From Bryum argenteum (Eukaryota > Streptophyta > Bryopsida > Bryales > Bryaceae): a stretch of 64,000 bases of DNA. How positions within the stretch are numbered: position 1 is the stretch's first letter; every line of letters begins with the position of its first letter. Below, in pieces: positions 1,215 through 54,397 of the stretch. A program made the position numbers and the translations under genes. The notes under the pieces were generated by a model, which was not told where the DNA came from, ran no database searches, and saw only the letters and a program-made list of their open reading frames with translations. Where the stretch lies: contig CM073330.1 of assembly GCA_037043015.1 (NCBI GenBank), positions 8,202,012 to 8,266,011 on the forward strand. Reading direction: 5' to 3'.

Positions 1215-1225
1215 AAGTCTTGGAT
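1215..1225 (-). other. Putative self-priming site of the partial chromovirus
   Basis: AAGTCTTGGAT on the plus strand, 3 bp outside the LTR, is the exact reverse complement of ATCCAAGACTT at 1280-1290 inside the LTR. The same arrangement occurs in the complete copy. See the finding on self-priming. Confidence 0.7.
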
Positions 1226-1228
1226 TAT

Positions 1229-1464
1229 GTAAGAGTCTAGTCACAAAAAACAAGCAAAAACTATAAAAGAAATATATTGATCCAAGACTTAGGTTTACAA
1301 TGAATAAGAGTCCCTTATATACTAATCTCTTGGCTCAATCTGCCGAGGCTATACTTTAGCTCTCTCTGCTGAGGCTATACTTTAGCTCTCTTCGCCAAGT
1401 TCTATTTATAAAATTAATAGCGAGTGAACATCCGAGCTTATCAACGAGGCCTTGGCCCATGACA
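1229..1464 (-). repeat. 5' LTR of the partial chromovirus
   Basis: 236 bp with TG..CA ends (TGTCATGGG at 1464 reading leftwards, TCTTACA ending at 1229). It holds two diverged copies of the 25-bp unit GCTGAGGCTATACTTTAGCT(CTCTC) that also varies in number between the LTRs of the 21.4 kb element. A TATATAA box lies about 30 bp before the predicted transcript start. Confidence 0.88.
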
Positions 1465-16589: not shown

Positions 16590-17110
16590 CAATCTTGTTC
16601 GATAGGAGCCTTAACACCTTCTGGAATGGAGATCTGGGTCTCCGGAATACGATGGTCTTCTCCCTGCGATCCTGCATTCTCTGCCACTGGGCAATTGACC
16701 ACTGCCAAATTTGGGTGCCCTTCAGCGCCCGACGTGTTCAAATGGCTGCTGCCAGCGCCCGACGAGTGTTCAAATGGCTGCTGCCAGCGCCCGACGAGTT
16801 CAAATGGCTGCTGCCAGCGCCCGACGAGTTCAAATGGCTGCTACCAGCGCCCGACGAGTTCAAATGGCTGCTGCCAGCGCCCGACGAGTTCAAATGGCTG
16901 CTGCCACTGGGCGAAGGATCATCGGTGGGCGTAGGAACGGCATCTTGTTCGATAGGAGCCTGAACACCTTCTGGAATGGAGATCTGGGTCTCCGGAATAC
17001 GATGGTCTTCTCTCTGCGATCCTGCATTCTCTGCCACTGGGCAATTGACCACTGCCAAATTTGGGTGCCCTTCAGCGCCCGACGTGTTCAAATGGTTGCT
17101 GCCACTGGGC
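16590..17110 (-). repeat. Tandem duplication flanking the 30-bp repeat
   Basis: 16595-16745 and 16940-17095 are near-identical. Both encode AEGHPNLAVVNCPVAENAGS and then HRIPETQISIPEGV. Only a few bases differ by eye. Each copy contains a near-copy of the CAATTG palindrome inside the reading frame (AVVNCPVA). Confidence 0.88.
16737..16905 (-). repeat. 30-bp coding minisatellite, 5-6 units
   Basis: Tandem 30-bp units encode the decapeptide GSSHLNSSGA in the minus frame 16738-17718. One unit (near 16762-16772) has GAGTGTTC instead of GAGTTC, adding 2 bp. That shifts the frame, so the downstream frame 16094-16741 is separated from the upstream one. Confidence 0.9.
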
Positions 17111-19858
17111 GAAGGATCATCGGTGGGCGTAGGAACGGCAGCGACGTCATCGGGTGTAGGAACGGCAGAGGTGACTTCAGCAAGCGATTGATCGACTGGG
17201 TCAACAAGGCTCCCTTCAATAGGTTGAAGCCTTGGAAAGCCAAAAGACGGAGTTCCATCCGTTAACGTCTCACATGCCGGCGCTGGGACCACTGGGTTCT
17301 CAAATGACGTCGTCGCCGCGACTGGGTCTCCACCAATTAGAGGTTCAGAGCCATCTGCAGACCGTCCCTGACGAACAGGACCTTCCTGAGATGCAGTCTT
17401 GTAATCGGAACCTACAAAATCCCGACTTTCAGTTACCGGGTCTCCATGATTATATCCATCATCACAAGAGCAAACCGCTACGCCAAAGTTCTCCGGTTGC
17501 GCTGGTGCTGGCATCAGAGGCGCATTTGGGAAAAAACAGCGAAGAAAATCACATGAGCCACGAATGCGTCCCATCATCAGAGAGGACCTTTCCGCCATTG
17601 CCATATCCGTGGCCGTCCTATGCCCATCCGCAATGTCTGGCAGGATATTCTTCGAACTCTCGAGCAATGCTGCAAACCTCTCCGGATATGCGAGGTCTCC
17701 TTCGAAGACCGAAGTCACTTTAGTCGCAGGTGAATACTTGGCAGAGTCTTTGCCGTCCTCACCTTCATCCGCATCGTCCTCATCTTCGCCTTCACATTCA
17801 CAAATGAGAGAGTATACTTAGGTCAGCAGAAGAACTTAAAGTTGAGCATATAGAAATCGAAATATGAAGTGGGAAATACTTCCAGAGTCTGAACATATAT
17901 CCTTGAATGTTTGGTGCACTTCATCATCTGCACATTCGCCTTCTGCAGCTTCGGTGCCATCCCTAGCCAAAGTACCAGCATCGAAATTTGTCGCGATGTC
18001 TTCGTCGCAACCAGCTGAAGCACTCTCATCCGAGTTCTCGGGATTCAATTCTGTACCTTCGGATTTCCAACTCAAGCCATGATGATCTGAGACATCGGCA
18101 GTTGATTTTCCGGGGTGGAAAAGGTGCGCAAACCCTGTTAAGTTACATCCGAACTTGTGACTGAAGGCTAACATATCAAGCGAATCTCCCTGCAGAGCGA
18201 CAGCTATAGGTTTCAAACCATTCATCTGCCCAAAACAAAAAACCGGTCAGATTAGGATTCCCTGCCACTGGGCCATAGCCCCCTAGATTTTACAACTGTT
18301 CGAACCATAATTATACAAATAGGACTCGCAACTGCATACCGAAATATGTCAGGACCCTCGGACAGTGGGCAATTGCCCAGTGGATCTACAAACTAAATAA
18401 AAATGTGTGCGATCCTCACCACATCTGCAAAGAATCATCGGCTTTCGACCGCGCAGAATGCGATAAGCTTCACAGTGGGCCGTCATCTTCGTGAGTTTGA
18501 TGAAGTCGCTCAATGAAGTCTAGGTAGACCTCCATGCGCAGCTCGTCCTGATGAGATGGGTACTCTCGCACAAAGACCAATCTTCTTGAACTTCTCTTCA
18601 CTCACGGAGAACTTCTTTCCATGCCAAGGGTTGGCAACCGTTCTTGAATAGACGAGCACAACAACCCCATTACCCTTCTTGATCGTCTTTGTTCAAAAAG
18701 AAATATTTCTCCGCCGTTGCCGCTATGTCTCGAGATTCTTGCCTTTGTATAGTTCGAAAATACGCTGTCAACGTTGTTGCACTTCCTTTGATTTGTTACG
18801 ATGCGAGATCACCAACCAATGTGACGGGGGATGCAACAAATCTGCTGGGCTTGATGAGCACGTCAAGATGGATTTGTAAGTGCGCCCACTCATAGCATCA
18901 AACTCGAAATCCTCCTCTTCCGGAATTCGTCGATAGGACGGAAGTCTAAAATGCCACCCGCGATGTTCGATGACAATTCGGTTTCCCAATCCTCCTGAGC
19001 TACTTCACCCCATAGGTCCTGGTTTTCCACATGGATAACCTTCGAAAACTTCGTGAAATTCCGAGTTTTCTCCAATACGCCATACACAGGTGCAACGTCG
19101 GGTCGGAGAACGGGTTTCTTTTTGAACACGATCGATCTCCGCTAAAACCCAAGCGGAGGGCTCTCTTCTCGCGCCTCGGGTTGTCACTGGCTTTCATGAA
19201 CTTCGCCAGGTAGAGCTTAGTACCCCTCCGGCCATGTGGGCGGAGTTGAAACCTATCTCCGTCTTGAAGTGTTGCCAAGCCTCCGGATTTACGTCATCAT
19301 CTACCCAAAGCATAGCCGGGTAGTACTTGTTTATCCAAATAATCACGGCGTTCTTACGCTTCTTTCTCATCGATCCACTCCTTCAGATCAGAGCGAGAAT
19401 TTGTTTTTAGGTCTCATTAGACCCAATGTACACTTTGGGCGGAAGAACTACTTCTTCATTTTCCGGCGTTGGCGTGTGCTCCCCGTTAATCTCAAGGCCC
19501 TGTGTTATTCGTGCTACGAGCTCGGTCAAACTATACGTCCCCATACCACGGATACACTTGAACGTGTACGCAACGGTGTGTTTGCGTTCCCCATGGCTTG
19601 ACATCTTCCTTCCATTTATTCCCGTGTCCCGGATTAATCGGATCGCCACTTTCGTACCAGTGGAAGGCATCCATAATCGATTGTGCGGCTCATCCGCGCG
19701 CAAAATAACCCGAAACTCGCCCGGATATTCTTTTGCAGTCTTGTTCGCATTCCTCACTGTCATTGCGTTTAAAGTCTCCACTGCTTTCAATTGGAACTCC
19801 TACACAAGCAATAGCAACGAAGAAAATGATTCTCAAGTATCGTCGATATACACCTTAG

Positions 19859-21418: not shown

Positions 21419-21423
21419 AGTTT
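21419..21423. repeat. Target-site duplication AGTTT (left)
   Basis: The 5-bp AGTTT directly before the 5' LTR is repeated at 26916-26920 directly after the 3' LTR, as expected for Ty3-type integrase. Confidence 0.95.
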
Positions 21424-21657
21424 TGTCATGGGCCAAGGCCTCGTTGATAAGCTCGGATGTTCACTCGCTATTAATTTTATAAATAGAACTTCGGCAGTAG
21501 AGCTAAAGTATAGCCTCGGCAGTAGAGCTAAAGTATAGCCTCGGCAGTTGAGCCAAGAGATTAGTATATAAGGGACTCTTATTCATTGTAAACCTAAGTC
21601 TTGGATCAATATATTTCTTTTGTAGTTTTTGCTTGTTTTGACAGCTAGACTCTTACA
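21424..21657 (+). repeat. 5' LTR
   Basis: 234 bp, TGTCATGGG...TCTTACA. It contains two full 25-bp units CGGCAGTAGAGCTAAAGTAT(AGCCT). TATATAA at 21565-21571 lies about 31 bp before AAGTCTTGGAT at 21596, the predicted transcript start. Confidence 0.95.
21596..21606 (+). promoter_or_regulatory. Predicted transcript start / 5' end of R, complementary to the priming site
   Basis: AAGTCTTGGAT begins 31 bp after the start of the TATA box. It is the exact reverse complement of ATCCAAGACTT at 21660-21670. Confidence 0.65.
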
Positions 21658-21659
21658 TA

Positions 21660-21670
21660 ATCCAAGACTT
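21660..21670 (+). other. Putative self-primer binding site
   Basis: ATCCAAGACTT, 2 bp after the LTR end, pairs over 11 nt with 21596-21606. In Tf1 of fission yeast the first 11 nt of the transcript prime reverse transcription at this position. I see no match to the initiator-tRNA primer site usual in plant elements. Confidence 0.7.
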
Positions 21671-21836
21671 CTCTTGATTTTCTGAAGGGCTTCATCCTCC
21701 CTTGTTTTTTCAAACGAGAAAAGTAGGACATTGATTAAATTGAGGAACTTATCCACCCTCGTGGTAGTGATTGAAGATAGCCACGAACCGGGACGCATTT
21801 GAAGGCTTTGCGAGCTGAAGAAGAGTCGATTGAGAG

Positions 21837-22730
21837 GTGTTGCTTTTTGAGATGGAGAACGCCCGGATGATCGATGATGAGATCTTGCGGCGGCAGCAGC
21901 AGAAGCGAGCGCAAGGAGAAATTACGGCGGAAGACTATCAACGAGAGATCGTGAGGTTGCGCACACAATTTCAAGCTTCTCAGCAAGCTGAGAAGTTGGC
22001 TATCGAGCAGTTGGTTGCACAACAGTTGCAGGTGGCTCCAGCGGCTGGACAATTCACGAGTTTAGGAGGTCCGTCTTCATCGCGAGATGATGCCGCAATC
22101 GATCAAAAATAATATGGAGAAACTAAATCGCATTGCGCAAGCGATTGCCGATATTTCAAAGTTTGACGGAGTCGCAAGGGCTACCCGATATGGAAGGTCG
22201 AAGCAGATAACAAGCTTCGAATTGATGGAGCTGTACTTGGTACACCTCAAGATCAAGCCGCATACATGTTTTCGAGGATGGATGCGAAGGCGCAGATGAT
22301 GGTAGTATCTTTCTACCAAAATCAACGTGGTTGCAATGCGGCGACTTTTATTCAACATCTTGACAAATTTACATCGACCCGAATGCGGTGTGTGGGCATT
22401 GAATCGGCTTCAAGCAATGAAGCGGGGTAGGGAGTCATTCGCAACATTCTTGCCCAAGTTTGAGAAGGAGCTTGGTGAGAGTCAACTTACCATGGTTCCG
22501 GATATGGTGAAGATAGGATATCTTCGCGGTGCTCTCAACTCGAGAGATGCAACGCGATGATTGGACTTGTGACGTCATCGATTATGGTATGTTTGTCCAA
22601 GCTTTGTTGGCGGTCGGCTCTCAACTTGATTGCTTGCAATATCGGAAAGGTCGTCTTCTCCGATCGCGACATCAAATCGCGTATGGCCGATGGAGATGAG
22701 ATGGATTGGATGCCTACGGTCAAATAAGTA
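21837..22730 (+). pseudogene. gag of the chromovirus, frameshifted
   Basis: It begins MENARMIDDEI and continues through the FDG...YGRSK / YMFSRMDAKAQMMVVSFYQN block to a C-terminal part near 22730. The frame changes near 22090, 22190, 22360 and 22550. The sequence matches the gag remnant at 85-1055. No intact CCHC knuckle is visible; CLKRGHVQM near 22798 may be a relic. Confidence 0.8.
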
Positions 22731-23099
22731 AGCTTCGGAGACGTCGACTTTGGAGGAACAACAACGGTGTCGCCAAGAGGGACGCTTTTTTTATGTTTGA
22801 AGCGAGGCCACGTGCAAATGATCATTTATCCAAGCAAGGTGAAGGCAATGAGAACAAGAAGAAAGAGAGCGCGGACAAAACTTGATAGTGCGCGCAGTGA
22901 GAAAGAAGAGCAATGTCAAGATAGAGGAGGTCAAAGAGATGGAGAGTTGTGACTACGATGTAGAGTCGGAAAAACGAGCGACTTCCAAAGATAAGACTCG
23001 ATCGAAGCGTGGAGGCAAGTTGTCAAAGTTGAAGAATCTAGGAGACAAACTTAGACACGGGTGTGTATGTATGTTGATGTTTTAATAAACTCAACTATA

Positions 23100-26000
23100 T
23101 CTACTCGTGCTTTGTGTGATTCTGGATGCCAATGCTTTGCAATCGTATGCGAGCAATTTGTTCGACGGAGAGGGTTGGATCGTCATCTATTCAACCTAGA
23201 TCTTTGGAGCAAGTTACGACAATGAAGAAGCGGCCTATGATTTGCCAAATTGCAAATTTTATGGTCGATATTGATGGTATGGAGGAGAAGATTGTTGCCT
23301 ATGTTAATCCGGGGACGGATAGATGATATAATCTTGGGAAAAGGTTGGATGGAGCGACATGATGCAAGTGTTCGACCACAGCTAAAGAAGAGGTTTGCGT
23401 TCGAAAACCTTTCAAGATGATTGTGAAGACTCGACCGATTACGTTGGAGCCAATGCAAGAGATACGTGCATCGATGATTCAAACTTTGCGGAGAAGCGGT
23501 GAACCAGAGTAGAGGTTTTTAGTGCCACTTGGTTGACATCCGAGGAAGCACTACAACGAAGGTGTATAGGGACCCGGCACAACATGCTCCCGACCGCTCA
23601 TGCCGATTATTGACGCTTTTAATCGACAAGATGCAAAGTCGTTGCCCCCGCATAGGAAAGGGGTTGATCACGAGATCAATCTTATTGAAGGAAGACTAAT
23701 GATGACATCCCCGCCATGCCATTGTGTCGGATGTCCAGGATCAATTATTAGTTTTGCGCAAGACCCTTACGGAGTTGTTGGATAATGGATTTATTCGCGT
23801 AAGTAATTCACTGCGCAGCACTCCGGTCATATTTGTGAAGAAACCTGGCGGAGGATTGCGATTACGTGTTGACTATCGGCGATTGAACGAGATGAGTCGG
23901 AAGGACAACTATCCGATTCCGCGCATTGATGAGACGTTAAGATCCATTCTTTGCACCCAAATATATCTCCAAGGTTGATGTAATCTCTGCGTTTACCGGA
24001 TACGTGTGAAAGAAGGTGACGAGTGGAAAACGGCGTTCAAAACACGCTTTGGCTTATATGAGTGGTTGGTCACACCGTTTTGGTAGCGAAGCGCACTGCA
24101 ACTTTTGTGATATATCAATTGGATACTTCGCGACGAATTGGATATATCTTTTCCGCGTATATTGATGACGTGGTAATCTATAGTGATACTCAAAAAGAAC
24201 ATCGTGATGCGATTCTCGTGGATCATCCGTAAGCTTGCTAACGCAGGCTTCAACTTGATTTTGATAAGAGCGAGTTTGAAGCGACACTATTAAGTATCTT
24301 GGATATTTGGTGAAGACCGGTTGGGGTTTGCGGTGATCCAAAGAAAACTTGAGGCAATTCGTCAATGGGAGCCGCCAACAAAAGTGAAAGGAGTTCGTGG
24401 ATTTTTAGGTTTACGCAATTATTATCGACAATTCATAGATGGATATTCTAACATTGCGTAACCTCTTACTCGACTAACGCGAAAGATCAACCTTTCCATT
24501 GGACATCGAAATGTCAACATGCCTTTGATCGATTGAAGGAGGCATTAATTCATGCGCCGGTGCTCGTTAAATGGACTCCAGTTTTGGAAACAACCATTGA
24601 ATGTGATTCCTCCGGTTATCTTTGTTGGTGGCACCTTAATGCAAAAGGTGGACGGACTTTGGCATGCGGTTGCTTATTTCTCGAAGAAACACAACGATCC
24701 GTGTCCAATTATCCGATTCATGACAAGGAAATGCTAGCGATTTATACATTGCATCCGCGAGTGGCGTACATTACTTGTTGGCCAACATTTTGAAGTGAGT
24801 TGAGATCATCGCAATTTGGCTTATTTTCGAAGAAGCAACATTTGAGCGAGAGGCAAATGCGTTGGGCCTACGAGTTGAATGATTTTGACTTTGAGATCGT
24901 GCACAAGCCTGGCAAGGATCAAGTTCAATCGGATGCACTTTCTCGTCGGGAATGCAGGATCTTCCCCAACACGCAGATGATGATCGAATCATGAATCGAT
25001 ATCATCGACTTTTGAGACGGAGATGATGGCGCTTTGAAGGTTGTCGCTAAATCCGCATGGATCACGATGGTGATGCGATTCGAGAAAGAGGCTCCTGCTC
25101 TGAGTCGATAATGACCCCGCGTCCTATATGTCCATTTATTGACGCAGAGATGATTGCATTATGGGATGTTGCCCTGCAAACAAATCATCGTTATTGGAAG
25201 ATGCGAAAGCGGTTATGGATGGTGAGCGCCGACTACCCAAAGAATGGGGCTTACCTATCACGATTAGTGAGTGTTACAGAGATTCGGTCATCGATTGCGT
25301 TGGCGTGGGCGAATATGGATTCCGCGCGCGAACCTCTTCGGACGCGTTTGATCCAATCTACTCATGATTCACCACTAGAAGGACATCCAGGTCGTGAGGG
25401 TGCGCGTGACTTGATTGCACGTGAATATACGTGGCGCAGGTTGACACAAAGATGTTCGGAAATTTGTATGGAAATCGCAACGTGTGTGGAAAATCGAAGA
25501 TTTGGCGGGAGCGAAGCGGGTTGCTAAAACCTTTGCCAATTCCGCACGGATTTGGACCGAGCTCTCCATTGATTTTATTACCGGATTGGCACCAAGCAAG
25601 CCGATCGTAAAATATCATGGTTGTGACAGACCGTGTGTGTCAAATCTATCATTCTTTGCCTATATGAAAACAATTCGTGCACTTGATGTGGCTCACAAAC
25701 TTTTAGAGCAAGTTTTTCAAGATCACGGATTGCCTGCAGCATTGTGTCGGATCGTGGTAGTCAATTTGTTAGTCCGCTTTGGGGCCAAGTATGCAGATTG
25801 ATGAAGATTACGATCGGTTGTCGGCGACTTTCCATCCGGAGACAGATGGTGCAACAGAGAGGGCGAATCAAGAGCTTGAAACATATCTTCGTATTTTCAC
25901 GACATTTGAGCAAGAAGATTGGGCTTTTCGATTGCCGATCGCGATGATGGCGTTGAATAATCGTGTGTCGCGATCTATAGGTATGTCTGCATTTTTATGA

Positions 26001-26640
26001 CTCACGGTTATCATCATTCGGTCATGAATATTACTATACCCGAGGAGGCGGGTTCTTCGTTGTCACCGGCGGAAAAAGGACGCAAAGCTTGTTGAAAGAT
26101 CGGGCGTAATTCAAGTGAATCGGCAACAACGGCAATGGCCATTGCGAAGAGACTCAAGAACGTCGATCAAATACACGACGCCGCTCGGTGGCGAGGATTT
26201 TCGTCCGGGTGATCGTGTGTGGTTGAAGTTGAAAAACATCAACACGCGTCCGCCAATCAAGAAGCTTGATTGGATTGCTCTTCCTTATCGTGTATTGGAG
26301 TGCGTGGTACACATGCGGTTCGTTTGAATACACCGCCGTATTCATCCTGCTTTTCATGTGAGTTTAGTGAAGAAGGCGGTGAGGATCCGTTGCCTTCCCA
26401 ACTACCTCATGATAATGAGCCCGGTGTTGTTTTGAGCAATCCCGCTTTCGGCATCCACTAGCGAGGACGAGTATCTTTGTTGAAAGAGTGTTGCAACATC
26501 GACGTCGTGGCGCGGTTGGCAACTACTTGTAAAGTGGACATGATGGCCGGAGCCTACTTGGGAACCTGTTTGCCAATTACAAAATGTCATGGCCTTAGAC
26601 GATTACGAGCGTTTGTTGCGCGCGTCTGGTACTGATATTC
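23100..26640 (+). pseudogene. pol of the chromovirus: protease-like, RT, RNase H, integrase, chromodomain, frameshifted
   Basis: Reverse transcriptase: TPVIFVKKPGGGLRLRVDYR (from about 23821) and the catalytic YIDD at 24158-24169. RNase H: ECDSSGY near 24600 and KPGKDQVQSDALSR near 24910. Integrase: a zinc-binding-like region at 25360-25500, the LSIDFITG aspartate near 25570, SDRGSQFVSP near 25748 and FHPETDGATERANQE near 25830 with the catalytic Glu. Chromodomain: frames joined across a shift at about 26515 give a block of RRRG, GWQLLVKWT, then WPEPTWEP, followed by LDDYERLLRASGTDIPW; a TGA replaces one residue of that block. More than ten frame breaks mean no enzyme can be made from this copy. 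Confidence 0.88.
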
Positions 26641-26706
26641 CTTGGGCACATTCTCTTGTATGACACTTGTTAATTCATCAGCACATGAGGAGGACGAGGA
26701 GGCATT

Positions 26707-26915
26707 TGTCATGGGCCAAGGCCTCGTTGATAAACTCGGATGTTCACTCGCTATTAATTTTATAAATAGAACTTCGGCAGTAGAGCTAAAGTATAGCCTC
26801 GGCAGTTGAGCCAAGAGATTAGTATATAAGGGACTCTTATTCATTGTAAACCTAAGTCTTGGATCAATATATTTCTTTTGTAGTTTTTGCTTGTTTTGAC
26901 AGCTAGACTCTTACA
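26707..26915 (+). repeat. 3' LTR
   Basis: 209 bp. It is identical to the 5' LTR apart from one G/A difference (position 26734 versus 21451) and the loss of one 25-bp unit. Confidence 0.95.
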
Positions 26916-26949
26916 AGTTTCTAAAATGCTAATTACGGCATTAAGATAA

Positions 26950-36945: not shown

Positions 36946-37149
36946 GAATCGCATTTCCAATTCTTGGGCTGCCCGGGCAGCCAAGGTTTGAGATGCAGTA
37001 GACATGTCCAAAGCAGTTTTCCGAAGCTGCCCGATGTTCTGCAATGTATGCTATTACTTTGCTATGAGAGAATCCTGCTTAATTTCTTATCAACAATTCT
37101 CAATCTTGTTCCACGAAAATTTAGAAGTACTTGACAGGGATTACAATTT

Positions 37150-37745
37150 TGGAGTAGACATGCCAATGATTAGATATTAGGAGTACACATGCCACTGATT
37201 AGAAATTAGGAGACATGCCAGGGATAAGGAATTAGGATTAGACATTCATGCCACTGATTAGAAATTAGAAGACATGCTAGGGATTAGGAATTAGGAGACA
37301 TGGAAGGGAATAGAAATAAGGAGTAGACATGCCACTGATTAGGAATTAGGAGGAGACATGCCACTCATTAGGAATTAGGAGGAGACATGCCACTGATTAG
37401 AAATTAGGACATGCAAGGGATTAGAATTGAGTAAACATGCCAATAATTTGAAATTAGGAAGACAGCGAGGGATTAGAAATCAGGAGTAGACATGCGAGGG
37501 ATTAGAAATCGGGAGTAGACATGCGAGGGATTAGAAATCAGGAGTAGACATGCGAGGGATTAGAAATCGGGAGTAGACATGCGAGGGATTAGAAATCAGG
37601 AGTAGACATGCGAGGGATTAGAAATCAGTGGACATGCGAGGGATTAGAAATCAGGAGAAGACATGCGAGGGATTAGAAATCAGTATACATGGAAGGGATT
37701 AGAAATGAGTAGACATGCAAGGGATTAGAAATTCCGAGTAGACAT
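37150..37745. repeat. Minisatellite with a 29-bp unit
   Basis: About 20 units of GACATGCGAGGGATTAGAAA(TCAGGAGTA). The right half is regular at 29 bp and the left half is more diverged (GACATGCCACTGATTAGAAA type). It ends within 40 bp of the next palindrome copy. Confidence 0.92.
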
Positions 37746-37780
37746 GCCTGGAATCCGGACAATGGCCCACTAGATTGCAC

Positions 37781-47512: not shown

Positions 47513-48095
47513 CAATAGGGTGACATTCAAATTGGCCGTTTAGTAGTTCCAGGGATAGTGTCCTACACTGCTGCCAACTTTGACACCCTCCTCAAAGCTG
47601 AGAAATTTTTATTTTACCATGAAAATTTGGGGACAACATCATCTTTATGTTGAAAACATGCATACCAAATTTCAAGTCCAGGAGACTTATACAAAAAAAC
47701 TTATGCAAGATCTACCAACATGGGATAGCTGTGAGAAAAGTGTCACAGCTTCCAACTTTGACACCCTCCCAAGAATTGAGGAATTTTTTTTTTGCCCATG
47801 AAATTTTTGGAGCAAAAACATTTTTATGTTGTTTGCATGTGTGGAAAATTTCAAGTCCAAAAGACCCATACAAAAAATAATATTCCAAATCTATCAACAT
47901 GTGTAGTTTTGAGAAACAAAGGCTGGGGAAAACCATTTTACTACTTCCAACTTTGACGCCCTCCTTAGGATTGAGTTTCTGTTGATACATGGTGAAATTT
48001 TTGGCACAAGATCATCTCTACGCTGGTAACATATGAGATAAATTTCAAAGCCAAAAGATGTACACAAAAAAGTTATACCATATCTACCAACGTGT
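47513..48095. repeat. Left TIR of Tc1 element 1 (three tandem units)
   Basis: About 580 bp. Each of three units begins near CCAACTTTGACRCCCTCC (47573, 47751, 47945). Each continues with a TTTCAAGTCCA-like phrase and ends at ATCTACCAACATG or similar. The stop codon of the transposase lies inside this TIR. Confidence 0.9.
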
Positions 48096-49094
48096 ATGTC
48101 CTCCATTAGCGTCAATCACTGCTAGTAACCTAGAGGGCATAGAATGACATAGTTGAAGGAGCTTTGTACCATTGACTAACTTCCACTCTCTTTCAAGAAC
48201 TACCTTCAACACATCTAAGTTTCTAGGGCATTGTTTGCCATGTTGCACAACATCTTTTAACATCCTCCAAACGTTCTCGATTGGATTGAGATCGGGAGAA
48301 TTTGCAGGCCGGTTGAGCTTTTCGAGAAGGTGGCTTTGTCTCCATTCTTCACATATTTTGCTCCTATGGACGGGTGCCCCATCTTCCATAAGCACTCCTT
48401 GTGGAAATTGACCCATGAAATGAACCAATTTGGCATCGTAAACCACTTCTATAAAATCCTTAGCAAAACGCTGACCTTTAGGCTTAAAGACAAGTTCTGA
48501 CTTTTGTCCTCCGGCAAATGCGCCCCAAATCATTAAAGAAGTCCTTCCACTTTTAAAACTAGGAGCTAGACAACTTGATGAATAACGCTCGTATGTACTT
48601 CTCCAAACATGAATTTGCTGAGAATTTTTTCCAATTTCAAAAGTGGATTCATCTGTCCAAACAACACGCTCCCACTCTTTTGCACTCCATCCACGGTACT
48701 TCTGAGCAAAAGCTAATCGTTGAGACATGTGACGAGGTGTCAAAAAAGGTTTTTTGACTGCAATTCGACTAAAAATGCCATTTTTATGTAAGACCTTTTG
48801 AATAGTACGTCTACACACTTGAGTAGGACATGCATTGGTAATCTCTGAGAGTGAAGAGCAACGATGAATTTTTGAGTAATGCACAATACTACGAACATCT
48901 CTATCACTAAGTTTTTTAGCGTGACTTCCACCGCAAGGTTTGCGCTTGTAGGTTCCATTTTCTCTAAATGTTTTTACTAACCTTGTAACTGTTCTAATAG
49001 GAACTCCAATAGTAGCTGCAATTTGAACTCCTGTAAATCCTCCCTCACTCAAACCTATGATGCGAGCACGAATTTTATCTGAAATTGCCATCAT
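48084..49094 (-). CDS. Tc1-type transposase, intact, DD34E
   Basis: 336 residues, no stops. Cut-and-paste transposase acting in the nucleus on the element's TIRs. The N-terminal half has two helix-turn-helix regions (about residues 10-45, with RARIIGLSEGGFTGVQIA, and about 62-110). The catalytic core has WTDESTFE (Asp148), MEDGAPVHRS (Asp238) and SPDLNPIEN (Glu273). 34 residues lie between the second Asp and the Glu, the Tc1 signature, unlike the DD39D mariner-like type usual in flowering plants. The first of two adjacent Met codons is used here. Length is normal for Tc1. It is the sister of the ORF at 53387-54394, sharing roughly 70-75 percent of residues by eye. Confidence 0.95.
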   Translation of the reverse strand: MMAISDKIRARIIGLSEGGFTGVQIAATIGVPIRTVTRLVKTFRENGTYKRKPCGGSHAKKLSDRDVRSIVHYSKIHRCSSLSEITNACPTQVCRRTIQKVLHKNGIFSRIAVKKPFLTPRHMSQRLAFAQKYRGWSAKEWERVVWTDESTFEIGKNSQQIHVWRSTYERYSSSCLAPSFKSGRTSLMIWGAFAGGQKSELVFKPKGQRFAKDFIEVVYDAKLVHFMGQFPQGVLMEDGAPVHRSKICEEWRQSHLLEKLNRPANSPDLNPIENVWRMLKDVVQHGKQCPRNLDVLKVVLEREWKLVNGTKLLQLCHSMPSRLLAVIDANGGHTRW

Positions 49095-52817: not shown

Positions 52818-53398
52818 CAGTGGGGTACCAATCAAAATGTCGTTTTTGACTCTGCAGTGAGAAAAATTTCAGCATTGCGAACTTTGAAAGCCTCCTGAGA
52901 ACTCAAAAACTGGTATTTTACCACGAAATTTTTAACAAAGGTTTATCTTTAAGTTAATTACATGTATGCCAAATTTCAAGGCCAAAAGTTTCACTGAAAA
53001 AAAGTTATTCAAAATCTACCAACATTGGTAGCTGCGGAATTTTTTTCACTGCTGCCAACTTTGACAGCGTCCCAAAGAGTGAATAAATTTTTTATTACCA
53101 TGAAATTCTTGGACCAATAACCTCTTTAGGTTAAGAACATACGAAAAAAAAATTCAAGGCCAAAAGATTAATACAAAAAAAGAAATCCACATTATACCAA
53201 CATGTGTAGTTGTGGGAAACAAATGGGGGAAACCATTTTGTTGCTACCAACTTTGACACCCTCCCCACGGTTGAGAAATTGTCTATTTACCATGAAATTT
53301 TTGGCACAATATGCTCTTTATGATGCCAACATTCATACCAAATTTCAAGGTGCAAAAATTTTTATTAAAAAAAAAACATTTACAATCTACCAACGTGT
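52818..53398. repeat. Left TIR of Tc1 element 2 (three tandem units)
   Basis: Three units of about 180-190 bp, each with an AACTTTGA.A.CSTCC.. phrase (about 52879, 53057, 53248). They are homologous in plan to element 1 but diverged in sequence. Confidence 0.88.
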
Positions 53399-54394
53399 AT
53401 GTCTTCCTTTTGCCTCAATCACTGCTTGTAACCTAGAGGGCATAGAATGACATAGTTGAAGGAGTTTTGTATCATTGATTAACCTCCACTCTTTTTCAAT
53501 AACTACCCTCAAGTCATCTAAATTTTTTGGACATGTTGGGCCATGTTGCACAACATCTTTCAAAATCTTCCAAAGGTTTTCAATTGGATTGAGATCGGGA
53601 GAATTTGCAGGCCAATCGAGCTTCTCCAAAAGGTGTGTTTGTCTCCATTCTTCACATACTTTGCTACGATGAACGGGTGCGCCATCTTCCATGAGCAGTC
53701 CGTGTGGCACTCTACTCATAAAATGAAGCAACTCGACATTGTAAACTACTTCAACAAAATCCTTACCAGAACGTCTATCCTTGGGCATAAAAACAAGTTG
53801 TGACTTTTGCCCTCCAGCAAATGCACCCCAAATCATCAAAGAAGTTCTTCCACTCTTAAAAGTTGGAACTATACAACTTGATGCATAGCGCTCATATGCA
53901 TTTCTCCAAACATGAATCTGTTTAGAAATTTTTCCAACTTCAAAGGTAGACTCATCTGTCCAAACAACTCTCTCCCATTCTTTTATAGTCCACGGACGAT
54001 ACTTTTGAGCAAATGCCAATCGTTTAGACATGTGACGATGTGTCAGAAATGGTTTTTTAACAGCAATGCGACTGAAAATGCCATTCTCATGTAAGGTCCT
54101 TCGAATAGTCGATCTAGACACTTGAGTAGAACATATGTTAGTGATCTCAGAGAGTGTCAAGCGACGATAAGTTTTTGAAACGCGTATAATAGCACGGACA
54201 TCTCTATCATTAAGTTTTTTAGCACGACTTCCACTACAAGGTTTGCAATTATAGGTTCCATTTTCTCGAAATCTTTTCACTATCCTCTGAACCGTTCTAT
54301 CATCGACACTAACAATAGATGCAATGTCAACTCCTGTCTTCCCTGCCTCACTCAAACCTACTATACGAGCTCGAGTTTCATCTGAAACAGCCAT
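53387..54394 (-). CDS. Tc1-type transposase, intact, DD34E
   Basis: 335 residues from the ATG at 54394; the codon before it is GTG, so I start at ATG. Cut-and-paste transposase. Helix-turn-helix regions lie near residues 9-45 (RARIVGLSEAGKTGVDIASI) and 60-110. The catalytic triad is WTDESTFE (Asp147), MEDGAPVHRS (Asp237) and SPDLNPIEN (Glu272), with 34 residues between the last two. The frame is unbroken and the C-terminus (TRW) overlaps the left TIR, as in element 1. The intact frame in an otherwise decayed neighbourhood suggests recent activity. Confidence 0.95.
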   Translation of the reverse strand: MAVSDETRARIVGLSEAGKTGVDIASIVSVDDRTVQRIVKRFRENGTYNCKPCSGSRAKKLNDRDVRAIIRVSKTYRRLTLSEITNICSTQVSRSTIRRTLHENGIFSRIAVKKPFLTHRHMSKRLAFAQKYRPWTIKEWERVVWTDESTFEVGKISKQIHVWRNAYERYASSCIVPTFKSGRTSLMIWGAFAGGQKSQLVFMPKDRRSGKDFVEVVYNVELLHFMSRVPHGLLMEDGAPVHRSKVCEEWRQTHLLEKLDWPANSPDLNPIENLWKILKDVVQHGPTCPKNLDDLRVVIEKEWRLINDTKLLQLCHSMPSRLQAVIEAKGRHTRW

Positions 54395-54397
54395 CAC

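What the first reader, a model, noticed from the sequence alone, without database searches (positions are those of the whole stretch)
21596..21670. LTR retrotransposon with Tf1-like self-priming geometry in a plant genome
Seen: the 11 nt AAGTCTTGGAT in the LTR (21596-21606) is the exact reverse complement of ATCCAAGACTT 2 bp after the LTR (21660-21670). The LTR copy starts 31 bp after a TATATAA box, so it should be the very 5' end of the transcript. The same pair occurs in the independent copy at 1215-1225 / 1280-1290. Known: in Tf1 the first 11 nt of the mRNA fold back to prime reverse transcription at this site; Tf1/sushi elements are known from fungi and vertebrates. Inference: this is a self-priming chromovirus in a plant, where tRNA priming is the rule. 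A plant self-priming lineage would be unusual and may reflect transfer from a fungus.
Basis: partly seen in the sequence, partly recalled or inferred. Interest (0 to 1): 0.86.

Follow-up and report, generated by a model that had tools for sequence, protein, structure and literature searches.

The report
Self-priming retrotransposon family in a moss
A moss genome carries a retrotransposon family that probably starts copying itself by folding back the first letters of its own RNA instead of borrowing a transfer RNA; this way of starting is known from yeast and has already been predicted for moss elements, so it is a good new example rather than a new kind of thing.

Summary
AAGTCTTGGAT lies in the 5' LTR, 31 bp after the start of a TATATAA box; its perfect reverse complement lies 2 bp after the LTR, and the second copy has the same pair. 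The host is a true moss (plastid matK). The family is a chromodomain Ty3/gypsy element whose RT groups with fungal-named elements, apart from other chromoviruses of the same genome. In copies chosen by RT alone, 19 of the 20 with both arms keep 11/11 pairing. In an older, decayed family one pair reads U-A instead of G-C in 7 of 8 copies. Tf1-type self-priming is the best explanation (0.88), but it was not demonstrated: there are no transcript data, only one compensated pair, no older copy with both arms intact, and the arms' lower variability is not significant alone (P = 0.08). Verdict: a well-supported new member of a known kind.

The parts
21419..21423 (.). Target site duplication, left copy (AGTTT)
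21424..21657 (+). 5' LTR (TG...CA), 234 bp; one more 25-bp repeat unit than the 3' LTR and one substitution
21565..21571 (+). TATATAA box, 31 bp (start to start) before the LTR arm; the same distance in 26 of 27 readable family copies
21596..21606 (+). Predicted self-primer: first 11 nt of the predicted transcript (AAGTCTTGGAT)
21660..21670 (+). Predicted primer-binding site (ATCCAAGACTT), 2 bp after the LTR, 11/11 complementary to 21596-21606
21852..26663 (+). Broken gag-pol of this copy (many 1-2 nt indels; ends drawn by eye from the first ATG to a stop before the 3' LTR). A piece of 23730-24170 matches RVT_1 weakly (20.9 bits, below the curated cut-off of 29.6); a piece of 24832-25960 matches the integrase H2C2 zinc domain (33.5 bits, above its cut-off)
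26687..26702 (+). Purine-rich run 4 nt before the 3' LTR, possible polypurine tract (by eye)
26707..26915 (+). 3' LTR; LTR arm at 26854-26864
26916..26920 (.). Target site duplication, right copy (AGTTT)
1228..1464 (-). 5' LTR of the second copy, whose interior continues to the window start
1280..1290 (-). Predicted self-primer of the second copy
1215..1225 (-). Predicted primer-binding site of the second copy

Best explanation
It is a chromodomain Ty3/gypsy LTR retrotransposon of a moss, best filed near the Tcn1 clade, the moss and club-moss branch of the Tf1/sushi group. It most likely starts reverse transcription by self-priming. Transcription would begin about 31 bp after the TATA box, so the RNA's first 11 nt are AAGUCUUGGAU. 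These fold back on the PBS 2 nt after the LTR, RNase H cuts after nt 11, and the freed 11-mer primes minus-strand DNA. Shown here: the element, its LTRs and duplication, the perfect arms, their spacing, their retention across copies, one compensated pair, the lack of a tRNA 3'-end PBS, and the RT's fungal affinity. Inferred: the transcript start, the RNase H cut, use as a primer, and entry from a fungus.
For: Exact arms and chance estimate. Of 30 LTR-selected copies, 27 were readable: 24 pair 11/11 and 3 have one mismatch. In an LTR-blind sample chosen by RT hits, 24 were fetched: 3 had no junction in the stretch, 1 had the PBS only, and 19 of the 20 with both arms pair 11/11, the other having one mismatch (4 of these 24 loci are also among the 30). 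Pairwise substitutions in those 20 copies: primer 0.91%, PBS stretch 0%, U3 end 2.71%, U5 2.84%, leader 1.6-3.0%, gag 6-11%. In an older family pair 3 is U-A in 7 of 8 junction copies instead of G-C. On 15 distinct rows, 90.9% of cells pair against 20-56% for structures slid by 1-3 columns, with GC:7 and UA:6 at pair 3 and a covariation score of 0.084 against a shuffled mean of 0.038, 1 of 500 shuffles as high. RNAalifold finds 10 of the 11 pairs unaided; the window RNA's minimum-energy fold pairs 10 of the 11. RT identity is 58-68% to fungal-named and unnamed relatives among the 120 listed, but 42-45% over the 8 long RT pieces of other chromoviruses of this genome, split 100/99 in the tree. 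Known precedent: PMC6317226 (passages); Tf1 mechanism from PMC7175516 (passages).
Against: No transcript or primer data. Only one of 11 pairs shows a compensated change, which may be a single event inherited by all; the shuffled control does not remove relatedness, and two of its five measures do not exceed the shuffles. No older copy keeps both arms intact: the older family's primer and PBS forms are read from different copies; the best is L068 with 10 Watson-Crick pairs and one G-U, and the others have 8-10. Own-arm pairing in those 8 copies (74 of 88 positions, G-U counted) is no better in sum than pairing their PBS with the young family's primer (76) and barely better than the reverse (71). 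L092 mixes the two forms. The arms' lower variability is not significant alone: 1 of 22 sites against 31 of 151, Fisher P = 0.08. The fold's z-score is only -2.0. No named Tf1, sushi or Tcn1 sequence was in the tree, and the tree program warns of long branches meeting.
Confidence: 0.88

Rival explanations
1. A cellular primer other than a 3'-CCA end, such as an internal or half-tRNA fragment, pairs with the PBS; the LTR match is a by-product.
For: Half-tRNA priming is reported for some plant Ty1/copia lineages (PMC6317226, passages). No tRNA gene set of this genome was searched.
Against: The LTR arm itself matches 11/11, sits at the predicted transcript start, and differs together with the PBS at pair 3 between families. 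A tRNA would not change with it.
Confidence: 0.05
2. The inverted pair is real and conserved but acts as an RNA hairpin for another step (packaging, translation, dimerisation), and priming is by something unseen.
For: The RNA fold closes a hairpin of the two arms, and a conserved hairpin would also covary.
Against: Arm length of 11 and complementarity of the predicted RNA 5' end to a site just after the LTR match Tf1 as described in PMC7175516 (passages); no tRNA 3'-end PBS candidate follows the LTR.
Confidence: 0.05
3. Chance complementarity spread by copy number in one family.
For: All near-identical copies descend from one ancestor, so copy number alone adds no evidence.
Against: 2 of 20,000 shuffled LTRs contain the 11-mer; an older family keeps most of the pairing with one compensated pair.
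Confidence: 0.02

Closest known systems
Tcn1-clade chromoviruses of mosses and Selaginella (Novikova 2010, PMC2864245; Neumann 2019, PMC6317226)
   Same: Moss host, chromodomain, Ty3/gypsy domains, RT close to fungal elements, no tRNA PBS, predicted self-priming.
   Different: Nothing defining was found. Direct comparison with a named Tcn1 sequence was not possible; the published Selaginella element SM-Tcn1 showed neither a tRNA PBS nor a self-primer.
Tf1 of Schizosaccharomyces pombe
   Same: First 11 nt of the predicted RNA complementary to the PBS just after the LTR; Ty3/gypsy element, with SH3_Tf2-1 and chromodomain matches in the relative P0001.
   Different: Host is a moss; self-priming here is predicted and not shown; Tf1 itself was not in the tree.
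Chromoviruses of the same moss genome with a tRNA-iMet-type PBS word (L076-L079)
   Same: Ty3/gypsy RT, same genome.
   Different: TGGTATCAGAGC 1-2 nt after ...CA (their LTRs were not worked out). RT pieces of three of these elements (L102, L104, L105) are 43-45% identical and fall in the separate clade, 100/99; the fourth (L109) gave only split pieces.
TAR-lineage Ty1/copia elements (Houba, Osr-1)
   Same: Also predicted to self-prime in plants (PMC6317226, passages).
   Different: Ty1/copia; here RT precedes integrase, the Ty3/gypsy order.

Membership tests
Tf1/sushi-type self-primed elements | About 11 nt at the predicted 5' end of the RNA complementary to the PBS beside the LTR | tested here: met
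Tf1/sushi-type self-primed elements | Transcript really begins at the first base of the primer | not testable with these tools
   Only TATA spacing (31 bp in 26 of 27 readable copies)
Tf1/sushi-type self-primed elements | RNase H cut between nt 11 and 12 that frees the primer | not testable with these tools
   Biochemical; described for Tf1 in PMC7175516 (passages)
Tf1/sushi-type self-primed elements | RT groups with Tf1/sushi and not with tRNA-primed plant chromoviruses | tested here: inconclusive
   Groups with fungal-named elements and away from plant chromoviruses at 100/99, but no Tf1 or sushi sequence was in the tree
Tcn1 clade of mosses and club-mosses | Moss or club-moss host | tested here: met
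   Plastid matK 78-82% to Bartramia, Orthodontium and Campylium, 54-55% to Sphagnum and Flatbergium
Tcn1 clade of mosses and club-mosses | Chromodomain after the integrase | tested here: met
   Pfam Chromo above cut-off in P0001 (100%, rounded, over the queried RT-RNase H region of L053) and in P0002; not shown in the broken window copy or in L053, whose fetched stretch ends before it
Tcn1 clade of mosses and club-mosses | RT-INT monophyly with named Tcn1 elements | not tested
   No named Tcn1 sequence among the 120 listed
tRNA-primed plant chromoviruses (Tekay, Reina, CRM, Galadriel) | PBS complementary to a tRNA 3' end (starts TGG) | tested here: not met
   No TGG in 100 nt after the LTR

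The most novel reading that the evidence does not exclude
A self-primed lineage acquired from ascomycete-like fungi still spreads in this moss, largely as frame-dead copies served in trans. The LTR-primer-PBS block would then be the real unit under selection: it stays nearly unchanged while gag-pol decays, and the two primer arms co-evolve. Mosses would then be a natural comparative test bed for self-priming in plants.
Probability: 0.3. Interest if true: 0.55.

Novelty: new member of a known kind. Interest (0 to 1): 0.33.

Why it matters
Self-priming was demonstrated for Tf1 (as PMC4600332 states, passages); for plant Tcn1 elements the case I saw in print rests on prediction. A moss genome with a young, many-copy family and an older one that differs in both arms at one pair gives comparative support for the prediction and names an exact transcript start that cheap 5'-end mapping can confirm or kill. 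It also adds a data point to the fungus-to-moss transfer question.

Tried and rejected
tRNA 3'-end priming was rejected for this family: there is no TGG in 100 nt after the LTR, while 4 of 10 upstream stretches of other chromovirus families in the genome (L071-L080) do carry TGGTATCAGAGC. The other 6 of those 10 lack that word, and neither their LTRs nor other tRNA types were worked out.

A search for self-primer geometry (TATA + 24-39, at most 1 mismatch) in 20 upstream stretches of several families hit only three young-family copies, L061, L063 and L064. L062 has the arms but a mutated TATA. The decayed older copies are not found by this scan. No third self-primed family was found.

A genome pattern search for the PBS gave 0 because I wrote one N too many; it says nothing. 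A viral-contig scan with the RT alignment matched 20 pattern stretches and no relative. Rfam (gathering threshold) and ARAGORN found nothing in the window. Asking whether older copies pair better with their own arm than across families did not separate.

Rows dropped: L016, L025 and L026 not parsed; L117, L127 and L133 without a junction and L115 with the PBS only. L084 and L086 (no primer arm) and L087 (long insertion) were left out of alignment A2, although L087 is counted. Of L065, L069 and L070 no junction could be used. Solo or 3' LTRs L093-L100 have no PBS. In the tree, 79 of 130 cut rows were used; L106, L109 and L111 gave only split RT pieces and were not cut. The 120 listed homologues are the best of 5,768, so distant clades are under-sampled. 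By whole-protein bit score the seed-plant Tarenaya protein (610 bits, 43% identity) ranks above every fungal-named one (best 553 bits, 62%); I went by identity and by the tree, where it falls outside.

Full report
What was checked. The 11-mer AAGTCTTGGAT at 21596-21606 and its exact reverse complement at 21660-21670 are present as described. The LTR runs 21424-21657, so the second arm starts 2 bp after it, and the TATATAA box starts 31 bp before the first arm. The 3' LTR is 26707-26915 and a 5-bp duplication AGTTT flanks the element. The minus-strand copy at the window start has the same pair. The 11-mer appears in 2 of 20,000 dinucleotide shuffles of the LTR.

Host. The window lies in a 258.8-Mb assembly of 25 contigs; C1-C11 run from 44 to 7 Mb. 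Contig C12 holds a plastid matK. Its protein is 97% identical to an unnamed protein, 78-82% to Bartramia, Orthodontium and Campylium, and 54-55% to Sphagnum and Flatbergium. The host is therefore a true moss (that these are mosses is recalled); I did not determine the species.

The element. The window copy's coding region is broken by many 1-2 nt indels. Against the open-frame copy L053, over 3.2 kb, it shows 153 substitutions and 51 gaps. In pieces of the window copy the H2C2 domain is recognisable and RVT_1 only below its cut-off. The L053 frame (827 aa inside the fetched stretch) has RVT_1 and RNase H. The database protein P0001, 100% (rounded) identical to it over the queried RT-RNase H region, carries RT, RNase H, H2C2, integrase core, SH3_Tf2-1 and Chromo, in that order along the chain. 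This is a chromovirus with Ty3/gypsy order.

Does the pairing persist? In 30 copies chosen for LTR similarity, 27 could be read; 24 pair 11/11 and 3 have one mismatch. Because that sample was picked for LTR identity, I took a second one blind to the LTR. It comprised four RT hits from the first upstream fetch (L061-L064) and 20 others from near the top of the RT ranking. Four of these 24 loci (L116, L119, L120, L121) are also in the first sample. Of 24, 3 had no junction in the stretch, 1 had only the PBS, and of the remaining 20, 19 pair 11/11 and 1 has one mismatch. In those 20, pairwise substitution is 0.91% in the primer and 0% in the PBS stretch, against 2.7-3.0% in the U3 end, U5 and first leader stretch, 1.6-2.6% in the rest of the leader, and 6-11% in gag. 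By variable sites the contrast is 1 of 22 against 31 of 151, Fisher P = 0.08, which is suggestive only.

Covariation. An older, decayed family in the same genome (about 73-74% identical over LTR and leader) reads AATTCTTGGAT as primer in L068, L083 and L092 (and in LTR-only copies L093, L094 and L099) and ATCCAAGAATT as PBS in L067, L084 and L085. The third pair thus changed from G-C to U-A on both sides; it is U-A in 7 of 8 junction copies and U-C in the eighth, L092. No single older copy has both arms intact; the best, L068, has 10 Watson-Crick pairs and one G-U. Over 15 distinct rows of both families, 90.9% of cells pair, against 20-56% for slid partners; pair 3 reads GC:7, UA:6, other:2. 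RNAalifold recovers 10 of the 11 pairs. Limits: this is one pair and perhaps one event; own-arm pairing in the 8 older copies (74 of 88) does not clearly beat cross-family pairing (71 and 76); and on two of five measures the shuffles do as well.

Relatives. Outside close unnamed hits (81-92%), the named relatives nearest by identity are fungal (Podosphaera, Hirsutella, Berkeleyomyces, Chaetomium, Thermocarpiscus, and a Colletotrichum protein named Transposon Tf2-6; that these are ascomycetes is recalled) at 61-63%, while the seed-plant Tarenaya protein is at 43%, though with a higher whole-protein bit score. Other chromoviruses of the same genome are at 42-45% over the 8 long RT pieces; over the 75-residue query they were at 48-55%. 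The tree separates the two groups at 100/99 and places the moss family inside the fungal-named group, next to a clade with Podosphaera and Berkeleyomyces (99/77). The root is at the midpoint, the program warns of long branches meeting, and many rows have no named host, so the direction of any transfer is suggestive only. The older family's RT (L112) falls inside the moss clade on a long branch.

What is already known. Neumann et al. 2019 (PMC6317226; passages read) write that the Tcn1 clade of mosses and club-mosses clusters with Tf1/sushi, that the majority of its members lack tRNA PBSs and are predicted to self-prime, and that this supports ancient horizontal transfer. Novikova et al. 2010 (PMC2864245; passages read) described the clade's fungus-plant distribution and found neither kind of PBS in the Selaginella element. 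A review (PMC7175516; passages read) gives the Tf1 mechanism and says fungal Tcn1 was proposed to self-prime. Passages of PMC4600332 describe Tj1 of S. japonicus as likely self-primed. The listings of my searches showed no experimental test of self-priming in a plant; I did not read the listed papers beyond the four named, and the library holds only open-licence papers.

How it most likely works. Shown: the geometry, its retention, one compensated change, and the absence of a tRNA 3'-end PBS. Inferred: transcript start at the LTR arm, fold-back on the PBS, RNase H release of an 11-nt primer, minus-strand synthesis. The arms are at the right place for the first DNA base to be copied from the LTR side.

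A side pattern. The window copy's two LTRs differ by one substitution and one 25-bp repeat unit, so it inserted recently, yet its frames are dead. In LTR-blind copies gag diverges two- to four-fold more than the LTR end and leader. The simplest reading is that defective templates are copied in trans, keeping the cis-acting block; recombination between templates is an alternative, and assembly error in repeats is not excluded.

Verdict. Observation confirmed. Self-priming is likely (0.88). Family: near or in the Tcn1 branch of Tf1/sushi, by host, domains, priming and RT affinity, without a direct test against named Tcn1. Novelty: new member of a known kind.

Noticed in passing
window 21424-26915; L061-L064 and L114-L133: A young insertion (LTRs differ by 1 substitution and one repeat unit) with a coding region full of 1-2 nt indels; across 20 copies gag diverges 6-11% while the LTR end and leader differ 1.6-3% and the arms under 1%. 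Suggests defective copies mobilised in trans, or template recombination.
   Followed up: partly
window 48084-49094 (-) and 53387-54397 (-): Two related 336-aa ORFs that look like mariner/IS630-type transposases (by eye, no family search), lying between long inverted repeats (47508-47922/49785-50199 at 98% and 52815-53398/55178-55761 at 100%). The repeats themselves hold internal units spaced about 180-195 nt.
   Followed up: no
window 37133-37764: 29-nt tandem minisatellite with near-identical units in the middle and more divergent ones towards both ends.
   Followed up: no
window 16592-17140: 30-nt tandem units beside a duplicated 163-nt block, overlapping ORFs on both strands.
   Followed up: no
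L092 (G000:C1:33605450-33605900): One old copy has the older family's primer and the younger family's PBS base at pair 3, so the compensated pair is broken there; possibly an intermediate, a recombinant or plain decay.
   Followed up: no
L071 and L074: Other chromovirus families of this genome carry a perfect 13-nt hairpin (TCGACATCTACTC...GAGTAGATGTCGA) upstream of the RT and lack the TGGTATCAGAGC word in the stretch; their priming was not worked out.
   Followed up: no
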